NCBI GenBank assembly: GCA_947377705.1
Contig: CANCGU010000105.1
Location: 1-9,011, forward strand
Direction: 5' to 3'
DNA length: 9,011 nucleotides
Origin: Comamonadaceae bacterium
GTDB lineage: Bacteria > Pseudomonadota > Gammaproteobacteria > Burkholderiales > Burkholderiaceae
Shown: one piece after another, positions 3,071 through 8,930 of the stretch
Layout of the letters: every line of letters starts with the position of its first letter
Numbering within the stretch: position 1 is the first letter of the stretch
Translations under genes and position numbers: made by a program
The notes under the pieces: generated by a model
The model's input: only the letters and a program-made list of their open reading frames with translations
The model's database searches: none
Told to the model about the DNA's origin: nothing

Positions 3071-3970
3071 ATGTCCGAACCTACGGGGCCCAGCGCCGAC
3101 ACACACTTTGCCCCTGCCAGTTCGGTGCTGGAATTTGCCAACTGCCGCTGGCGGGTGCGCCGGCCTAAGCCCTTTGTTTTGGTGATTGAAGGCGAAGTAG
3201 AAGACAAATCGGCTGCACCCACCGACTACCTTCACGACAAGCTGCTCTTGCCCGAGTGGCGCGAAGCCTTCTACAAGCTTGTCGATGCCACTGGCTTGGT
3301 GGTCTGCCTGAATGTGCATACCCAACACCCCACCTACCGCGATGTGCGCGGGCGCTCTAGCAAAGGACGTCTGAGCCAAGGCGAGTACTACCACCACGAC
3401 GGCTGCACGGGCCCCGTCAAGCCGCGCTTTGTGGAAATTCGCTGCCCCATCCAGCCGCAAACACGCGGCGTGGCCACCGCTGTAGCGCCCCATCACGATG
3501 TGGTCAAAGCCATGGTGCAAGTGCTGCCCGCCGAGCTGGCCGCCACAGCCGCACTGGCCTCGCAAGACATGAGCCCCGGAGCCTTAGACCACATGGACTA
3601 CGAAGCGCTCGACCACTTGCAAGGCCTCATCACACGCACCGTGCGCAAGAAGCTCAACGCCGAAGGCGCACGCAACTACTTCCGCCAAGTGGATGCCGCT
3701 GCCAATGCCTACTTTGAACCTTGGGCCTTGGGCGAAAGCCGCTTTATTGCCAACGCCAACAGCCGGCTAACCATGCAACACCGCCGCGCCTACCAAGCCC
3801 CACACACCGGCGGCGTAGCCAATGGCCACTTGGTCAAGCGCTGGACCCATGAAGAACTGCTGCTACCCGGCCAAGTGACCGACCTTGCCTTGATTGCCGC
3901 GCTGTGCAGCGAAGAAGGTGATGAAGTGGATGGGGAGCGGGCTGAGGGGTGTTATCTCGGAGTGCATTGA
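3071..3970 (+). CDS. Uncharacterised protein with a possible Fe(II)/2-oxoglutarate oxygenase signature
   Basis: I do not recognise a named family for this 299-residue protein. ATG 3071 (MSEPTGPS) is preferred over an upstream TTG at 3029 because the added residues look non-conserved; no strong ribosome site is visible for either. The sequence has features expected of a double-stranded beta-helix oxygenase. EYYHHDGC (105-112) contains an HxD pair (His108, Asp110). Distal His237 in LTMQHRRAY (233-241) is followed by Arg238 and Arg239, as in the metal-His and 2-oxoglutarate-Arg region. If correct, it would be a cytoplasmic iron-dependent oxygenase, but this is inference from motif spacing only. 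There is no signal peptide or membrane segment. A TAAAAT -10-like sequence lies at 3011-3016. The last ~200 bp occur again at 5207-5411, downstream of the ATPase gene. The gene is divergent from the TetR-type gene. Confidence 0.75.
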   Translation: MSEPTGPSADTHFAPASSVLEFANCRWRVRRPKPFVLVIEGEVEDKSAAPTDYLHDKLLLPEWREAFYKLVDATGLVVCLNVHTQHPTYRDVRGRSSKGRLSQGEYYHHDGCTGPVKPRFVEIRCPIQPQTRGVATAVAPHHDVVKAMVQVLPAELAATAALASQDMSPGALDHMDYEALDHLQGLITRTVRKKLNAEGARNYFRQVDAAANAYFEPWALGESRFIANANSRLTMQHRRAYQAPHTGGVANGHLVKRWTHEELLLPGQVTDLALIAALCSEEGDEVDGERAEGCYLGVH

Positions 3971-3976
3971 GTGCGA
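3775..3976 (+). repeat. Left copy of a ~200 bp direct repeat (3' end of the oxygenase-like gene)
   Basis: This segment covers codons for the last 65 residues of the oxygenase-like gene, its TGA stop and six following bases. It aligns with 5207-5411 with about 11 substitutions and one in-frame 3-base insertion in the right copy (counted by eye). Similarity stops abruptly at GAGTGCGA on the right side of both copies. The ATPase gene and its promoter lie between the copies. Confidence 0.95.
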
Positions 3977-4001
3977 GCAAAAAAGCGACTAAACCACATT
4001 G

Positions 4002-4034
4002 CTTTTTAATATAGCCGCGACTTTTTAATATAGT
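4002..4034 (+). promoter_or_regulatory. Tandem 13 bp repeat and likely promoter of the ATPase gene
   Basis: CTTTTTAATATAG occurs at 4002-4014 and again at 4021-4033, a 19 bp period, in a short AT-rich island between GC-rich genes. It supplies a plausible promoter: TTAATA (4006-4011), a 17-base spacer and TATAGT (4029-4034). A 7 bp inverted repeat, GTCATTT (4033-4039) and AAATGAC (4052-4058), follows directly before the ATPase start and could be a regulator site. The leader would be only ~20 bases and has no clear ribosome site. Confidence 0.45.
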
Positions 4035-4061
4035 CATTTCGTTTGGTCGTAAAATGACCGC

Positions 4062-5192
4062 ATGAAACGCTACCTCGATGACCGTGTACAGGCCGACTTG
4101 GCTAAAAAAATGGTGTTCCTGACTGGCCCGCGCCAGGTCGGAAAAACCACGCTCAGCCGCCAGCTCATCGCCCAGCAAGGCGGGCAATACCTTAACTACG
4201 ACGTGCCCGCAGACCGGGCCATCATCCTGCACCAGCGCTGGAACCCACAGGCGGCACTGCTGGTGCTCGATGAAATCCACAAAATGCCCGACTGGAAAGC
4301 TTGGCTCAAAGGCGTGGTCGATGGCAGACCCGCCGCCCAACAACTGCTGGTGACCGGCAGCGCCCGCATGGACACCTTTCGGCAAAGCGGTGAATCTTTG
4401 GCTGGGCGCTTCTTTGGGCTGCGACTGCACCCGATATCGGTGCGTGAATGGTGCGAACAAACCGGGGCCACGCCCGATGCAGCGCTCACACATTTGCTAG
4501 AGCGCGGCGGCTTTCCTGAACCCTGCCTAGCCACCGACAACGAACATGCTGAACGCTGGCGCAGACAATACTTTGACGGCCTCGTGCGCAACGACGTGCT
4601 GGAGTTTTCCCGCATCCAAGAGGTCAACGCCATTCGCCTGTTTGCCGAGCTGCTGCGCTCACGCGTGGGATCGCCCCTGTCGCTGGCAAGCATTGGGCGC
4701 GACTTGGCTGTGTCGCCCGTCACGCTCAAAAAATACCTCGACATCTTGGAAGCGCTCTACATCGTCTTTGTGGTGCGCCCTTTTCACGACAACATTGCCC
4801 GCGCCGTGCTGCAAACGCCCAAGGTGTACTTTTACGACACCGGCTTGGTGGTGGGCGACGACGGCCTGCGATTTGAAAACCTGGTTGCCACCGCCTTGCA
4901 CAAGCATGTGCAGTGGCAGCACGACGTGCAAGGCCAAGAAACTGGGCTGCACTACATCCGCACCAAAGACGGGGCCGAGGTGGACTTTGCCCTGAGCCAC
5001 AAAGGCCAGCTCACCCAATTGGTGGAATGCAAACTGTCAGACCCCAAACCCCACCGCGCCCTGCTGCGCTTTGCCCGCGAACAGCCGCAAGCGCAGGCGG
5101 TGCAAGTGGTGCGCCATTTGCCGCACAGCCATGCGCTGGGCGAGATACAGGTGACGCGGGCTGATGATTATTTGAATGGGTTGGCGGCTTGA
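4062..5192 (+). CDS. AAA+ ATPase with DUF4143 domain (COG1373-type)
   Basis: The 376-residue protein has the usual length and layout of the ATP-binding AAA_14/DUF4143 family. Walker A is GPRQVGKT (22-29), Walker B is LLVLDE (66-71), and LLVTGSARM (95-103) is the sensor segment. An NDVLEFSRI motif (177-185) leads into a winged-helix-like region (about 205-235: LASIGRDLAVSP...LKKYLDIL). The C-terminal part has FENLV (271-275), GAEVDF (304-309) and VECK (321-324), resembling a PD-(D/E)xK nuclease-type core with Asp308, Glu322 and Lys324. These proteins are widespread, often isolated or mobile genes, and their biological role is not established. The gene stands alone between two direct copies of the oxygenase 3' end (3775-3976 and 5207-5411), so it looks like an inserted unit with its own promoter. 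The family call is confident; the function is unknown. Confidence 0.93.
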   Translation: MKRYLDDRVQADLAKKMVFLTGPRQVGKTTLSRQLIAQQGGQYLNYDVPADRAIILHQRWNPQAALLVLDEIHKMPDWKAWLKGVVDGRPAAQQLLVTGSARMDTFRQSGESLAGRFFGLRLHPISVREWCEQTGATPDAALTHLLERGGFPEPCLATDNEHAERWRRQYFDGLVRNDVLEFSRIQEVNAIRLFAELLRSRVGSPLSLASIGRDLAVSPVTLKKYLDILEALYIVFVVRPFHDNIARAVLQTPKVYFYDTGLVVGDDGLRFENLVATALHKHVQWQHDVQGQETGLHYIRTKDGAEVDFALSHKGQLTQLVECKLSDPKPHRALLRFAREQPQAQAVQVVRHLPHSHALGEIQVTRADDYLNGLAA

Positions 5193-5206
5193 AGCTCTAG
5201 GCAAAC

Positions 5207-5411
5207 GCAACACCGCCGCACCTACCAAGCCCCACACACCGGCGGCGTAGCCAATGGCCACTTGGTCAAGCGCTGGACCAATGAAGAGCTGCTGCTACCC
5301 GGCCAAGTGGCCGACCTTGCCTTGATTGCTGCGCTGTGCAACGAAGAAGATGATGATGAAGTGGATGGGGAGCGGGCTGAGGGGTGTTACCTCGGGGCGT
5401 ATTGAGTGCGA
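5207..5411 (+). pseudogene. Right copy of the direct repeat: orphan C-terminal fragment of the oxygenase-like gene
   Basis: The codons match the last 65 residues of the oxygenase-like protein, from QHRR onward to the stop at 5403-5405, without start codon, HxD motif or N-terminal domain. About seven substitutions change amino acids and four are silent, and there is one extra Asp codon. This looks like relaxed constraint, although the frame is still open. It lies in the same frame as the ATPase gene, whose TGA at 5190-5192 is the only stop between them. It sits directly upstream of the terminator, as expected for the original 3' end of a gene convergent with lpdA. Confidence 0.88.
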
Positions 5412-5424
5412 TGAATACGCAGCC

Positions 5425-5451
5425 TAATCACCGCATCGAATGCGGTGATTA
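5425..5451. repeat. Perfect 12 bp inverted repeat with 3-base loop
   Basis: TAATCACCGCAT, then CGA, then ATGCGGTGATTA. The following bases are A-rich on the plus strand, and no T tract follows on either strand. It is therefore not a standard intrinsic terminator, despite lying between two convergent 3' ends. It could act as an RNA 3' end-protecting hairpin or a protein-binding palindrome. It occurs once in the window. Confidence 0.7.
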
Positions 5452-5469
5452 AAAAACCCTTCGCAGAAT

Positions 5470-5505
5470 AAAAAAGCCCAGACAGTTTCCTGTCTGGGCT
5501 TTTTT
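5470..5505. terminator. Strong bidirectional intrinsic terminator
   Basis: The 16 bp stem AAAAAAGCCCAGACAG (5470-5485) pairs with 5490-5505 around a TTTC loop. There are six T residues on the 3' side of the plus strand and six on the 3' side of the minus strand. It ends plus-strand transcription from the ATPase/oxygenase remnant and minus-strand transcription from the lpdA fragment. The GCCCAGACAG-TTTC-CTGTCTGGGC core is identical to that of the terminator of intact lpdA at 7016-7045. Confidence 0.93.
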
Positions 5506-5523
5506 GTTTGCAGCGCGAAGCGT

Positions 5524-5735
5524 TTACTTGTTGCTAGGCGGCAAGTCCGTGCAGCTACCGTGCGTCACTTCTGCCGCCATGCCGATGCTTTCGCCCAGCC
5601 TGGTGTGTGGGTAGATGGTTTTGCTGATGTCAACAGCGTCTGCGCCCATCTCGATGGCCAAAGCAATCTCGCCGATCATGTGTCGCCCGCGTGCGTGCCC
5701 ACCATGCCGCCGCCGAGGATTTTTCCCTAGCCGTG
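5524..5735 (-). pseudogene. Broken 3' fragment of lpdA (dihydrolipoamide dehydrogenase C-terminus)
   Basis: The minus strand encodes [20 protein letters not shown]... to DLPPSNK and a TAA stop, clearly the C-terminal ~70 residues of the intact LpdA at 7068-8930. It is dead: a 2-base insertion at the CATGTGTCGCCC site (around 5679-5684) breaks the frame, and upstream of it a TAG replaces a His codon. The catalytic segment HPHPTLGE has become YPHTRLGE. Similarity including the terminator spans 5462-5735 against 7004-7277. Many differences are silent in the lpdA frame (at least nine by eye), showing that the fragment diverged for a time as a working gene before decaying. At 5735 it joins an IS remnant abruptly, so a 5524-5772 frame on this strand is a chimaera with IS codons and not a real gene. 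Confidence 0.92.
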
Positions 5736-5835
5736 CAACGATCTGGCTTTCACTGAATCTTGATTTCTTCACGTACTAACTTCGCTAGGTGGAATTCTCT
5801 ACTCTCAGCTGGTTCGGGTTTCCGAGGGGGCTTCA
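5736..5835 (-). mobile_element. Remnant of an IS3-family insertion sequence (left end and first codons of orfA)
   Basis: The minus strand reads KKSRFSESQIVA after a GTG codon at 5770-5772. This is the characteristic N-terminus of IS3-family OrfA transposases (normally MKKSRF[ST]ESQIV). After about 13 codons it breaks off into the lpdA fragment. Upstream, the minus strand has TGAAGCCCCCTCGGAAACC (5817-5835), resembling an IS3-type terminal repeat beginning TGAA and GC-rich. Its distance of ~63 bases from the orfA start fits an IS left end; that boundary is less certain. The element cannot encode a transposase. The remnant ends about five bases from the stop codon of the zinc-ribbon gene. Confidence 0.75.
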
Positions 5836-5840
5836 CGCTG

Positions 5841-6542
5841 TTACCCTCCCCTTAGCTTCTTTTCGTGAGATTCGTACTTTTTGGCTTGCTCAGGAAAATC
5901 CCTGCTCATTGAATCAATCGCTTGGAGCTTTTGCGCAGCGCTGGTTTTCGGGCTGTTTATGTCCGCCACATAAGATTTGAACTCTGCATCGGCGACCATT
6001 TTTTTAAGGTATGCATCATCAGACACTTTGGCACAAGGACGCAAAGCAGTTGCGGCATCCCAGTACCGGCCGCTTGCAAAGAGCGCTTTATATCGGCTCT
6101 TCTTCTCGTCTAACAGTGGGACACATTCCGCTTTCATTTGTTTTTCAAGTGCTTCCTGCTCTTTGTCGAAAGCAGCTCGCTCTTTATCGAATTCAGCTTG
6201 GTAATACGACTTTACTGCGGACTCTCGTTTTTCGCGCTCAATCCTTTTCGCTGGTGTCTCTGCGGCTTTTTCACCATCTCTGATGATGCCGGAATAAACA
6301 CTGTCGCAGTCGCCCCTGCTCCCGCCAAAATTCTTCTCGCACACCTGCCGGGCTGCAATGGCTTGGTGCTCGTAATCAGGCTTGGCGCCACTCCACACAA
6401 GAATTAAAGCCACCACACCAACGGGAACACCTACCAACCACGGCCAAAGCTTCTTCTTGGGGATAACGGCCCCGCACTTAGGGCAGGCGAGCGCCGATGT
6501 GCTGATCTCCTTTTCGCACTCCGAGCATTTGATTATTGGCAT
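5841..6542 (-). CDS. Zinc-ribbon, single-membrane-segment protein with coiled-coil region; function unknown
   Basis: The 233-residue protein begins with a zinc ribbon: CSEC (Cys6, Cys9) and CPKC (Cys20, Cys23), spaced as in the short zinc-ribbon domains of bacterial membrane proteins. A Lys-rich stretch (29-31) leads into one hydrophobic segment, WPWLVGVPVGVVALILVW (33-50). Charge distribution suggests the ribbon is cytoplasmic and the rest outside. Residues 88-140 are highly charged and predicted coiled coil by eye (EKAAETPAKRIEREKRES...). Cys68, Cys79, Cys140 and Cys170 could form disulfides if exported. No enzyme motif is seen and I cannot name a family. Base composition is more AT-rich than the neighbours, with many AAA/GAA/TTT codons, and the gene is flanked by an IS remnant and a duplicated lpdA fragment. 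It is therefore probably acquired. The ATG at 6540-6542 is preceded only by a weak ATAAG. Confidence 0.82.
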   Translation of the reverse strand: MPIIKCSECEKEISTSALACPKCGAVIPKKKLWPWLVGVPVGVVALILVWSGAKPDYEHQAIAARQVCEKNFGGSRGDCDSVYSGIIRDGEKAAETPAKRIEREKRESAVKSYYQAEFDKERAAFDKEQEALEKQMKAECVPLLDEKKSRYKALFASGRYWDAATALRPCAKVSDDAYLKKMVADAEFKSYVADINSPKTSAAQKLQAIDSMSRDFPEQAKKYESHEKKLRGG

Positions 6543-6562
6543 CTTATTTTGACTGCTATTTA

Positions 6563-6591
6563 ATTAACATTATTAAGCTTACTACATTCAA
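6563..6591 (-). promoter_or_regulatory. Possible promoter of the zinc-ribbon protein gene
   Basis: On the minus strand TTGAAT (6586-6591), a 17-base spacer and GTTAAT (6563-6568) give a fair sigma70-type match in an AT-rich stretch directly before the gene. The implied leader is very short (about 13 bases), so other start sites are possible. Confidence 0.3.
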
Positions 6592-7003
6592 ACGGATGAG
6601 CCTTTAAGCCTGCCTGGGTGGTACACGCTGATACAGAATAATGTACAAAGTGAGCCATCTGCAAAGATTGAACGTTCAGAAAATCCAACCACATTTGCAC
6701 GAGTATGGCTCACGTTTTAGGCGTCACAGGCCTGCGCACTAGGGCCTACTTGGATAAGCAGGGTGCTTGCTCTAGGGCTGTTGTCCGAGATTTCTCTGTA
6801 GTACCCGTTGCTGGCGGAACTAGAGCAGCCATTCCATGCAGCGTTGACAAAACCGCTTTGCCACCCTTACCAACTGACGCGCTGATCGACCTCAAAGTCC
6901 GGCAGCGTATGGAACCGCCAGTCCTTTGGATTTATTCCATCAAATCTGAATAGACCTCATAAGCGCACAGAAATCCCCCGCTCATGCATCCGCCTTGTTC
7001 GAG
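6592..7003. other. Intergenic stretch without a convincing gene; possible degraded coding DNA
   Basis: No RNA gene or recognisable domain is seen. The plus strand has an open frame 6705-6953 (82 codons from ATG) with mixed codon use and no ribosome site or family resemblance. The minus strand frame 6953-6717 reads protein-like (for example DGINPKDWRFHTLPDFE) but is interrupted by one in-frame TAA at 6867-6869 and has no start. Either could be a remnant of an acquired gene. A 9 bp inverted repeat, GTGAGCCAT (6650-6658) and ATGGCTCAC (6705-6713), lies in this stretch; its role is unknown. Confidence 0.4.
6705..6953 (+). CDS. Doubtful small hypothetical open reading frame
   Basis: This is an 82-codon open frame from ATG 6705. 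The product has no membrane segment, no recognisable motif and no family resemblance. Its codons include AGG and AGA and lack the GC-rich third-position bias of the surrounding genes. There is no ribosome site upstream, and the start codon lies within one arm of a 9 bp inverted repeat. It may be non-coding; the opposite strand over the same bases is about equally plausible as a broken gene. Confidence 0.15.
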   Translation: MAHVLGVTGLRTRAYLDKQGACSRAVVRDFSVVPVAGGTRAAIPCSVDKTALPPLPTDALIDLKVRQRMEPPVLWIYSIKSE

Positions 7004-7277
7004 CGCAGAAAACACAAAGCCCAGACAGTTTCCTGTCTGGGCTTTTTTGTTAAGCAACGCGAAGCGTTTACTTCTTGCTAGGCGGCAAGTCCGTGCAGCT
7101 ACCGTGCGCCACTTCTGCCGCCATGCCGATGCTTTCGCCCAGCGTGGGGTGTGGGTGGATGGTTTTGCCGATGTCCACAGCGTCTGCGCCCATTTCGATG
7201 GCCAGAGCGATCTCGCCAATCATGTCGCCCGCATGCGTGCCCACCATGCCGCCGCCCAAGATCTTGCCGTGGCCGTG
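7004..7277 (-). repeat. Intact-side copy of a ~274 bp direct repeat (lpdA 3' end plus terminator)
   Basis: The segment from CGCAGAA (7004-7010) through the terminator into lpdA as far as 7277 aligns with 5462-5735 in the same orientation, with roughly one difference in nine by eye and small compensating indels. Between the copies lie the IS remnant, the zinc-ribbon gene and the 6592-7003 stretch. Confidence 0.92.
7016..7045 (-). terminator. Intrinsic terminator of the aceF-lpdA operon
   Basis: The 13 bp stem AAAGCCCAGACAG (7016-7028) pairs with 7033-7045 around loop TTTC, 22 bases after the lpdA stop. On the minus strand the tail is TTTGTGTTTTC, weaker than the six T residues of the second copy at 5470-5505. 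On the plus strand six T residues follow, so it also works against transcription entering from the left. Confidence 0.88.
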
Positions 7278-8930
7278 GGCCTCGGGTGAATCGTCAAACA
7301 GCAGTTTGGTCACGCCTTCGTCGCGGCCGTTGGCAATGGCGCGGCCAGAAGCCGTCCAGGGGAACAAGCCCTTTTTCACCTTGATGCCTTGCGCTTTGGC
7401 TTGGTCTTCGGTCAAGCCCACCCATGCCACTTCGGGGTCGGTGTAGGCCACGCTTGGGATGACGCGTGCGTTGAACGCAGCGGCTGCCAACTCTTTGTTG
7501 CCTTGCAGTTCACCCGCAATGACTTCGGCTGCCACATGTGCTTCGTGCACCGCTTTGTGCGCCAACATAGGCTGGCCCACGATGTCGCCAATGGCAAAGA
7601 TGTGCGGCACGTTGGTGCGCATTTGAATGTCGACGTTGATAAAGCCACGGTCAGTCACGGCCACGCCGGCTTTTTCAGCAGCGAGTTTTTTGCCGTTGGG
7701 CGTGCGGCCCACGGCTTGCAACACCAGGTCGTACACCTGCGGCGCGGGGGCTGTGCCGCCCTCTTCTGCCGGTGCAAACGTGACTTCAATGCCTTCAGGC
7801 AAAGCGCGTGCAGACACGGTCTTGGTCTTGAGCATGATGTTGTCAAAGCGCTTGGCGTTCATCTTTTGCCAGACCTTGACCAAGTCGCGGTCAGCGCCTT
7901 GCATGAGGCCGTCCATCATTTCCACCACGTCCAGACGTGCGCCCAACGTGCTGTAAACCGTGCCCATCTCTAGGCCGATGATGCCGCCGCCCAAGATGAG
8001 CATGCGCTTGGGCACCTCTTTGAGTTCCAAAGCCCCAGTGCTGTCGACCACGCGTGGGTCGTTGGGCATGAAAGGCAAACGCACCGCTTGCGAGCCTGCA
8101 GCGATGATGGCCTTCTTGAAGGCGATCACTTTTTTGCTGCCGGTGGTGGCTTGTGCCGTGCCGCTGGTCTCGCTCACTTCGAGGTGGTTGGCCCCCACGA
8201 ATTGGCCCAAGCCGCGCACGGTGGTGACCTTGCGCATCTTGGCCATGGCAGCCAAGCCGCCTGTGAGTTTGCCAACGACTTTTTCTTTGTGGCCGCGCAG
8301 CTTGTCGATGTTGACGGCGGGTGCACCGAAGTCCACACCGAGGTCAGCCATGTGGGCCACTTCGTCCATCACCGCTGCCACGTGCAGCAAGGCTTTGGAG
8401 GGGATGCAACCCACGTTCAAACACACGCCGCCCAAGGTGGCGTAGCGCTCAACGATGACCACATTCAAGCCGAGGTCAGCCGCACGGAATGCAGCCGAGT
8501 AACCGCCAGGGCCGCCGCCCAACACAAGCACATCGCACTCGATGTCGGCAGAACCGCCGAAGCTGGAAGCCACAGGTGCAGGGGCTGTAGCCACAGCCGG
8601 CGCTGCGGCAGAAGCAGTTGCAGCTGCTGGGGCCGAACTAGCTGCCGATGCTGCAGCTGGGGCTGGGGCTGAAGCAGCAGACGCGCCCGCGCCCTCACCT
8701 TCGAGCACCAACACCACAGAACCTTGCTTGACCTTGTCGCCCAGCTTGACTTTCAACTCTTTCACCACGCCCGCGTGTGAGGATGGAATTTCCATCGACG
8801 CTTTGTCGGACTCCACGGTGATGAGCGATTGCTCTGCGCGCACGGTGTCACCGGGCTTGACCAGCAACTCAATCACGGCCACTTCGTCGAAGTCGCCGAT
8901 GTCTGGAACTTGGATATCAATCATTGCCAT
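7068..8930 (-). CDS. lpdA: Dihydrolipoamide dehydrogenase (E3) with N-terminal lipoyl domain
   Basis: This 620-residue flavoprotein reoxidises the dihydrolipoyl arm of the pyruvate dehydrogenase complex, passing electrons through FAD and a redox disulfide to NAD+ in the cytoplasm. Residues 1-80 form a lipoyl domain with the lipoylated lysine Lys43 in ESDKASME. Residues 81-125 are an Ala/Pro-rich swinging linker. The FAD motif is GGGPGG (138-143), the redox disulfide is Cys170/Cys175 in [13 protein letters not shown], the NAD motif is GGGIIG (314-319), and AIGD (446-449) is the second FAD contact. The active-site His594 and Glu599 sit in HPHPTLGE. The extra lipoyl domain makes it longer than the ~475-residue E. 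coli Lpd and is usual in betaproteobacteria. The start is supported by TAAGGA eight bases upstream; the gene begins nine bases after the aceF stop, so both are on one transcript. Confidence 0.98.

What the first reader, a model, noticed from the sequence alone, without database searches (positions are those of the whole stretch)
3775..5411. DUF4143 ATPase bracketed by direct repeats of its neighbour's 3' end
The ATPase gene, with its own promoter region, lies exactly between two direct copies (3775-3976 and 5207-5411) of the last ~200 bp of the oxygenase-like gene. The left copy completes the intact gene; the right copy is an orphan fragment. This resembles integrative elements that restore the 3' end of their target gene, or single-crossover integration of a circle carrying a 3' end segment. 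No integrase, transposase or terminal repeat is visible. Recombination between the copies would remove the ATPase and leave a complete oxygenase gene.
Basis: partly seen in the sequence, partly recalled or inferred. Interest (0 to 1): 0.72.

Follow-up and report, generated by a model that had tools for sequence, protein, structure and literature searches.

The report
Integrase-free insertion hotspot with scars
In freshwater Limnohabitans-type bacteria, foreign genes keep being inserted between two ordinary genes, apparently by one normal homologous join and one sloppy join, and some of these events leave a broken copy of the neighbouring gene's end as a scar.

Summary
The repeats are real: the last ~205 bp of the "oxygenase" gene recur after the ATPase (93% identical). 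Between the two cargoes lies window 5207-5735, a relic of the ancestral ox-lpdA junction, collinear with empty sites in relatives.

The gap is an insertion hotspot: 9 of 31 relatives with both genes in view are empty; others hold 0.7-23 kb of varied genes, and 18 of 52 occupied gaps (window included) keep same-direction fragments of ox or lpdA 3' ends. Fragment lengths vary widely, no integrase was recognised in the 30 relatives' cargo ORFs scanned, and in three genomes (perhaps not independent) orphan and intact lpdA copies differ almost only at third codon positions: alleles of different lineages brought together, not a fresh self-duplication.

Best explanation: homology-facilitated illegitimate recombination, one end anchored in the border gene, the other joined inside the same gene. 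The window's own ox pair does not show the codon signature. Repeats, empty sites and allele divergence are shown; the mechanism is inferred. A scar-rich variant of known integrase-free hotspots.

The parts
3071..3970 (+). ox: intact left border gene (label only; ORF listed from 3029, ATG at 3071 fits the relatives' start)
   Evidence: no family hit
3775..3976 (+). left copy of the ox 3' end, part of the intact gene
3977..4061 (+). upstream region of the ATPase, carried with cargo 1
   Evidence: homologous in L008 and L013
4062..5192 (+). cargo 1: AAA_14/DUF4143 ATPase, PADLOC candidate family PDC-S01
5193..5206 (+). ATPase tail and right junction; similarity to L013 and L093 ends about 5202 (GGC), then ox sequence
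5207..5411 (+). orphan ox 3' end (right copy)
5207..5735 (.). relic of the native ox-lpdA junction: ox 3' end, hairpin 5426-5450, terminator 5473-5503, lpdA 3' end
   Evidence: aligns over its whole length to 8 of 9 empty sites, 76.9-91.9%, and to the ninth over 520 columns at 69.8%
5524..5735 (-). orphan lpdA 3' end, frame disturbed
5736..7003 (.). cargo 2: zinc-ribbon protein gene 5841-6542 (-) and ORF 6705-6953 (+)
   Evidence: no relative of this stretch in the fetched loci beyond one 64-bp match
7004..7277 (-). second copy of terminator and lpdA 3' end, part of the intact gene
7068..8930 (-). lpdA: intact right border gene, dihydrolipoyl dehydrogenase with lipoyl domain

Best explanation
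The ox-lpdA gap is an integrase-free insertion hotspot. Chromosomal DNA from a related strain or species, carrying cargo beside its own ox (or lpdA), recombines with the recipient. One end is homologous, inside the border gene; the other is joined illegitimately at a variable point. When that point falls inside the same border gene, the recipient's old 3' end stays behind as an orphan and the intact gene receives the donor's 3' end. In the window this happened once from each side, so a piece of the original junction (5207-5735) is stranded between two cargoes. Shown: both repeats, empty sites, the relic junction, scars in many loci, variable scar length, copies of different-lineage origin in some genomes. 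Inferred: delivery by natural transformation, which end was homologous, and the order of events.
For: Relic junction collinear with empty sites. Empty sites in 9 of 31 relatives with both genes in view, gap 71-120 bp. Scars in 18 of 52 occupied gaps (W plus 51 relatives, 247 kb): 6 with ox, 14 with lpdA fragments, 2 with both; all in direct orientation save one 73-bp hit in L047; 388 other genes of the same loci (433 kb, own versions only) gave 3 hits, all inverted. Three 400-kb samples of other regions gave 0 orphan copies beyond a gene's 3' end. Orphan versus own intact lpdA: third-position differences 43 of 48 (G036), 74 of 94 (G039), 16 of 18 (G041), no gaps, frames open, so these copies diverged as working genes in different lineages. 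There the orphans keep one shared left flank (95.0-96.5% over 716-733 bp) while the three intact copies have different terminators. W and L013 are homologous from ox through the ATPase to about 5202, where W turns into ox sequence.
Against: The window's own ox pair lacks the signature: 11 differences, 4 at third positions, 7 in non-synonymous codons, 3 gap columns, and both copies share a variant private among the 24 rows, so in situ duplication or gene conversion fits it as well. Window lpdA pair: 10 of 18 at third positions, 2 gap columns. The G036, G039 and G041 orphans share a flank, so they may descend from one event. G039 copies are identical only over about 300 bp in mid-gene, not up to the orphan's broken end as the simplest model predicts. 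Microhomology at the ATPase junction is at most GGC and not provable. Competence is not demonstrated: DprA family 17 of 20, ComEC family 18 of 20 genomes, and both ring in E. coli too.
Confidence: 0.65

Rival explanations
1. Campbell-type integration: a circle carrying cargo plus a 3'-end segment integrates by one homologous crossover in the border gene, giving the same flanking copies.
For: Identical anatomy; the ATPase|ox3' junction shared by W, L008 and the L022 remnant could be a circle joint; in L052 an lpdA and an ox fragment lie side by side in reversed order.
Against: Needs a circularised chromosomal fragment for each of many different cargoes; no replicon or circle genes were recognised in the 30 cargo ORFs scanned. 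Not tested directly.
Confidence: 0.15
2. Insertion with long target duplication by a transposition-like process that copies the recipient's own gene end.
For: Window ox copies show no third-position excess (4 of 11) and share a private variant.
Against: lpdA copies in G036, G039, G041 diverged under selection as separate alleles; no transposase in the window and no terminal repeats; duplicated length varies from tens of bp to 1500 bp.
Confidence: 0.1
3. Remnants of integrase-driven elements that target the 3' end of ox or lpdA and restore it, now without integrase.
For: Anatomy as in elements that replace the 3' end of a protein gene (e14 in icd, recalled). Tyrosine integrases exist in all 32 genomes searched.
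Against: No integrase in the 30 cargo ORFs scanned; none of the listed places lies in the gap in the 8 genomes where I could identify the gap's contig (G002, G004, G005, G008, G013, G031, G038, G041), though that list was cut; a phmmer check of 52 gaps with two integrases found nothing, but the two queries did not find each other either, so it is weak. No fixed crossover point; two targets.
Confidence: 0.08
4. Assembly artefact.
For: The window comes from a short metagenome-type contig.
Against: Same junction in independent assemblies L008 and L022; scars also in isolate genomes.
Confidence: 0.02

Closest known systems
Homology-facilitated illegitimate recombination (de Vries and Wackernagel 2002, Prudhomme 2002, Meier and Wackernagel 2003; originals not read, seen cited in passages of PMC5361080 and PMC2884548)
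   Same: One homologous join, one illegitimate join, cargo gained beside an anchor gene.
   Different: As I recall, laboratory products typically lose recipient DNA; here the illegitimate join lies inside the anchor gene, so an orphan 3' end remains. RecA and uptake dependence untested.
Insertion with long target duplication (Nobusato et al. 2000, Gene 259:99; original not read, seen in passages of PMC1643837, PMC4978471, PMC3154945)
   Same: Insert flanked by long direct repeats of the target; empty site with one copy.
   Different: There frequently linked to restriction-modification genes; here varied cargo, and in three genomes the copies are alleles of different lineages.
Gene-transfer hotspots without mobile elements (Oliveira et al. 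2017, PMC5635113; passages read)
   Same: Rapid gene turnover between two conserved genes, homologous recombination at the flanks proposed.
   Different: That model has two homologous ends; the scars here indicate one illegitimate end.
Orphan immunity-gene arrays in V. cholerae T6SS loci and Rhs C-terminal displacement (PMC5361080; passages read)
   Same: Displaced 3' modules stay behind as orphans after anchored insertion.
   Different: There the gene end is exchanged for a different one; here a housekeeping gene is restored intact.

Membership tests
Homology-facilitated illegitimate recombination product | One insert border lies in sequence homologous between donor and recipient | tested here: met
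   ox-ATPase side homologous in W, L008, L013; intact lpdA copies with differing terminators
Homology-facilitated illegitimate recombination product | Other border non-homologous, with at most a few bases of microhomology | tested here: inconclusive
   W departs from L013 and L093 at about 5202; GGC at most shared with ox; donor sequence known for this junction only
Homology-facilitated illegitimate recombination product | Depends on DNA uptake and RecA | not testable with these tools
   DprA family 17 of 20, ComEC family 18 of 20 genomes; weak
Insertion with long target duplication | Long direct repeats flank the insert; empty site has one copy | tested here: met
Insertion with long target duplication | The repeat is a duplicate of the recipient's own target | tested here: inconclusive
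   Not met for lpdA in G036, G039, G041; open for the window's ox pair
Integrase-mediated element restoring a 3' end | Recombinase gene in the element | tested here: not met
   Window ORFs and 30 of 216 cargo ORFs; one search list cut; weak
Integrase-mediated element restoring a 3' end | Fixed crossover point and constant repeat length | tested here: not met
Gene-transfer hotspot without mobile elements | Variable gene content between the same two conserved genes | tested here: met
   216 cargo ORFs in 137 clusters, crude ORF calls
Gene-transfer hotspot without mobile elements | No mobile-element genes | tested here: inconclusive
   IS30-like domains in L022 (rve) and L027 (HTH_38), otherwise none in the 30 scanned
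Gene-transfer hotspot without mobile elements | Raised recombination in the flanking genes | tested here: inconclusive
   W lpdA last 400 columns 97-100% to L002, next 1100 columns 88-98%; no formal test

The most novel reading that the evidence does not exclude
Once formed, [cargo + copy of the neighbour's 3' end] is a self-contained, integrase-free cassette: the two gene-end copies serve as homology arms, so cargo lodged there can be popped out, taken up and re-inserted by ordinary recombination at the same gene in related species, precisely and without harming the gene. The ATPase|ox3' junction found in three species would be such a travelling cassette, carrying a candidate anti-phage gene.
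Probability: 0.25. Interest if true: 0.72.

Novelty: new variant of a known kind. Interest (0 to 1): 0.56.

Why it matters
Many gene-gain hotspots lack recognisable mobile elements, and how genes enter them is inferred from population statistics (PMC5635113, passages). Orphan 3' ends of the border genes, with the codon-position test, give a footprint of individual insertion events: which side was homologous, which was not, and whether the DNA came from another lineage. The same footprint can be searched for at other hotspots. If the gene-end copies also act as homology arms, single genes such as candidate defence ATPases can move between species without a recombinase of their own.

Tried and rejected
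Integrase element: disfavoured by variable orphan length, two target genes and no integrase recognised in scanned cargo; not every cargo gene was scanned. Transposon: no shared end word above background (6 and 7 nt; 300 random segments mean 6.2, max 13), no transposase domain in the window ORFs scanned. Genome-wide habit of Limnohabitans: not supported, 0 orphan copies beyond a gene's 3' end in 1.2 Mb from three genomes. The same screen gave, in those samples, 5 copies beyond a gene's 5' end (all G004), 1 and 1 'inside' 5' cases (G014, G004) and 1 'inside' 3' case (G004), which I did not follow; its 5' hits in the loci were mostly lipoyl-domain paralogy around lpdA. The first repeat listing was swamped by giant repetitive ORFs and cut, so one search replaced it. 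Phasing the window's ox copies against L008 and L013: no donor tract seen. Donor of cargo 2: none in the fetched loci; 16 related proteins at 60-77% identity exist in the large protein set, without context. ATPase elsewhere: 8 of 49 genomes carry it at 81-83% nt identity in another, shared neighbourhood; two of those 8 show short 3'-end copies there (L095 56 bp at 79%, L101 49 bp at 84%), suggestive only. Dropped rows: the L024 ox hit (the gene's own end past an early stop); the L022 ox hit (30 bp, E 5e-4) lies above the E cut-off and is not in its counts; the contig-end lpdA starts of L024, L037 and L056 were trimmed. Paper searches for such scars; none of the listings names this site, but most subscription papers are not held.

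Full report
Observation. The two copies of the ox 3' end lie at 3775-3976 and 5207-5411: 205 aligned columns, 93.2% identity (two pieces). The left one ends the intact gene, the right one is an orphan, and the ATPase with its upstream region lies between. The ATPase has AAA_14 and DUF4143 domains and matches the PADLOC candidate family PDC-S01 (best E 3.3e-62). 'Oxygenase' has no support: no hit in Pfam, PADLOC, NCBIfam or PDB sequences.

The window's middle is a relic. Window 5206-5735 (ox 3' end, hairpin, terminator, lpdA 3' end) aligns over its whole length with the empty ox-lpdA junction of 8 of 9 relatives (76.9-91.9% identity) and over 520 columns with the ninth (69.8%). So the original junction is stranded between two inserts, one on each side, and both border genes are intact.

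Empty sites and turnover. One scan of genome contigs with the ox protein matched 99 stretches and kept the best 80, mostly Limnohabitans and relatives. In 31 of the 80 both genes were found in the fetched stretch; 9 of these 31 are empty, gap 71-120 bp (L001, L011, L014, L020, L028, L032, L035, L039, L043). Elsewhere the gap holds 0.7-8.9 kb in the stretches with both genes, and 11-23 kb in five further genomes where I fetched both ends (G004, G005, G031, G038, G041). From W and L001-L061, a crude ORF caller gave 216 cargo ORFs in 137 clusters. I scanned 30 cargo ORFs of relatives against Pfam: class II aldolase, TctC, DUF2130, NnrU, type I restriction, cytochrome bd, PhoD and others; IS30-like domains in L022 (rve) and L027 (HTH_38); no tyrosine or serine integrase. 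PF00589 rings in all 32 genomes searched; none of the listed places lies in the gap in the 8 genomes whose gap contig I could identify, but the list was cut. A phmmer search of the 52 gaps with two integrases found nothing; the two queries found only themselves in the control, so this test is weak.

Scars. I searched each occupied gap of 300 bp or more (52: W and 51 relatives; 247 kb, many cut by contig or stretch ends) with ox and lpdA, both strands. Ox 3' fragments occur in 6 (W, L003, L005, L008, L040, L052), lpdA fragments in 14 (W, L026, L027, L030, L033, L037, L038, L041, L045, L046, L047, L052, L054, L061); together 18 of 52. All are in the direct orientation except one 73-bp hit in L047. 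The ox fragments lie in the last 196 bp of 900, the direct lpdA ones in the last 803 of 1863. Control: 388 other genes of the same loci (433 kb; own versions only, whereas ox and lpdA were also searched in the window's version) gave 3 hits, all inverted. The L024 ox hit was dropped (the gene's own end). Several lpdA scars consist of two pieces with the middle missing, as expected of decay. Longer orphans turned up when intact lpdA was located: 1038 bp in G036 (L163), 1500 bp in G039 (L164), 279 bp in G041, which also has two ox 3' copies of 118 and 121 bp. In three 400-kb samples from other regions (G002, G014, G004) the screen for orphan copies beyond a gene's 3' end found none, so this looks like a feature of the site; the ORF caller was crude and the screen has its own unexplained 5' hits in G004.

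Whose copies are they? If an insertion copies the recipient's own gene end, orphan and intact start identical and the orphan then drifts at all codon positions. In G036, G039 and G041 the differences are 43 of 48, 74 of 94 and 16 of 18 at third positions, without gaps. These copies diverged as working genes in different lineages. There the orphan keeps one shared flank (95.0-96.5% over 716-733 bp), while the three intact copies have different terminators. I read the orphan as the recipient's old end and the intact gene as a hybrid with a donor 3' end. Because the flank is shared, the three may go back to one event, though their broken ends and cargoes differ. L054 (16 of 23) and L008 ox (10 of 17) point the same way; L005 ox (4 of 5) is too small. 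Against this, the window's ox pair shows no bias (4 of 11) and the window's lpdA pair little (10 of 18, 2 gap columns). In G039 the two copies are identical over about 300 bp in mid-gene but differ again nearer the broken end, which needs mosaic exchange or gene conversion.

The ATPase insert. L013 carries ox-ATPase without an ox copy on the right; G021 (L093) has the same ATPase right flank on a contig that begins inside the ATPase, and its ox on another contig (L021) is followed by other sequence, so its ATPase site is open. The ox-ATPase side is shared by W, L008 and L013. Similarity between W and L013 stops at about 5202, where W turns into ox sequence; GGC is the only possible microhomology. 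In L013 the ATPase is broken. W, L008 and an L022 remnant share the right junction. W and L008 cargo are 97.05% identical over 1222 bp, the ox copies about 90%, so the cargo seems to have been exchanged after the site arose; purifying selection on the ATPase (differences 1, 4, 19 by codon position) may add to that. Eight other genomes carry an 81-83%-identical ATPase in another shared neighbourhood; I recognise acetoacetyl-CoA synthetase and dapD there by eye, from no call.

Mechanism. The facts fit homology-facilitated illegitimate recombination: a donor fragment of cargo plus border gene pairs with the recipient's border gene, and its other end is joined where it can be. Joins that destroy lpdA would be selected against (inference); joins that leave an intact gene plus an orphan end survive. 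A circle integrating by one crossover gives the same product and cannot be excluded. Competence is not shown: DprA family 17 of 20 and ComEC family 18 of 20 genomes, families that also ring in E. coli. A paper search for Limnohabitans with natural transformation gave 4 listings, none on the subject by title and start of abstract.

Known relatives. Passages read: PMC5635113, PMC5361080, PMC2884548, PMC1643837, PMC4978471, PMC3154945, PMC3784515. The Nobusato, de Vries, Prudhomme and Meier papers were not read. The present case is a variant: scars at both border genes of one hotspot, with evidence in some genomes that the duplicated ends are alleles of different lineages.

Noticed in passing
window 3977-4061; upstream of the ATPase in L094-L101: The ATPase upstream region holds repeated GCGACT / AGTCGC words (AGTCGCGACT palindrome in several genomes), kept across loci that differ elsewhere; looks like an operator.
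   Followed up: no
L052:12407-12528: An lpdA fragment and an ox fragment lie 5 bases apart in the order lpdA then ox, the reverse of the native order; hints at a circle joint or nested inserts.
   Followed up: no
L003, L005, L006, L007, L025, L064 versus L022, L026, L027, L028 and others: A class II aldolase gene sits downstream of ox in some species and upstream of it, within about 2 kb, in others.
   Followed up: partly
L095:4527-4582 and 5824-5878; L101:5922-5970 and 7946-7993, 5789-5847 and 6701-6759 (ATPase-forward orientation): Short, decayed 3'-end copies flank the ATPase or its neighbours at its other chromosomal location too.
   Followed up: partly
L123-L142 (G014) and L143-L162 (G004): Giant repetitive ORFs of 7,202 and 10,052 codons.
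   Followed up: no
L013:2245-3376: The ATPase is a broken gene there.
   Followed up: no
G004 sample, L143-L162: Five direct-repeat copies beyond gene 5' ends in the screen, unexplained.
   Followed up: no
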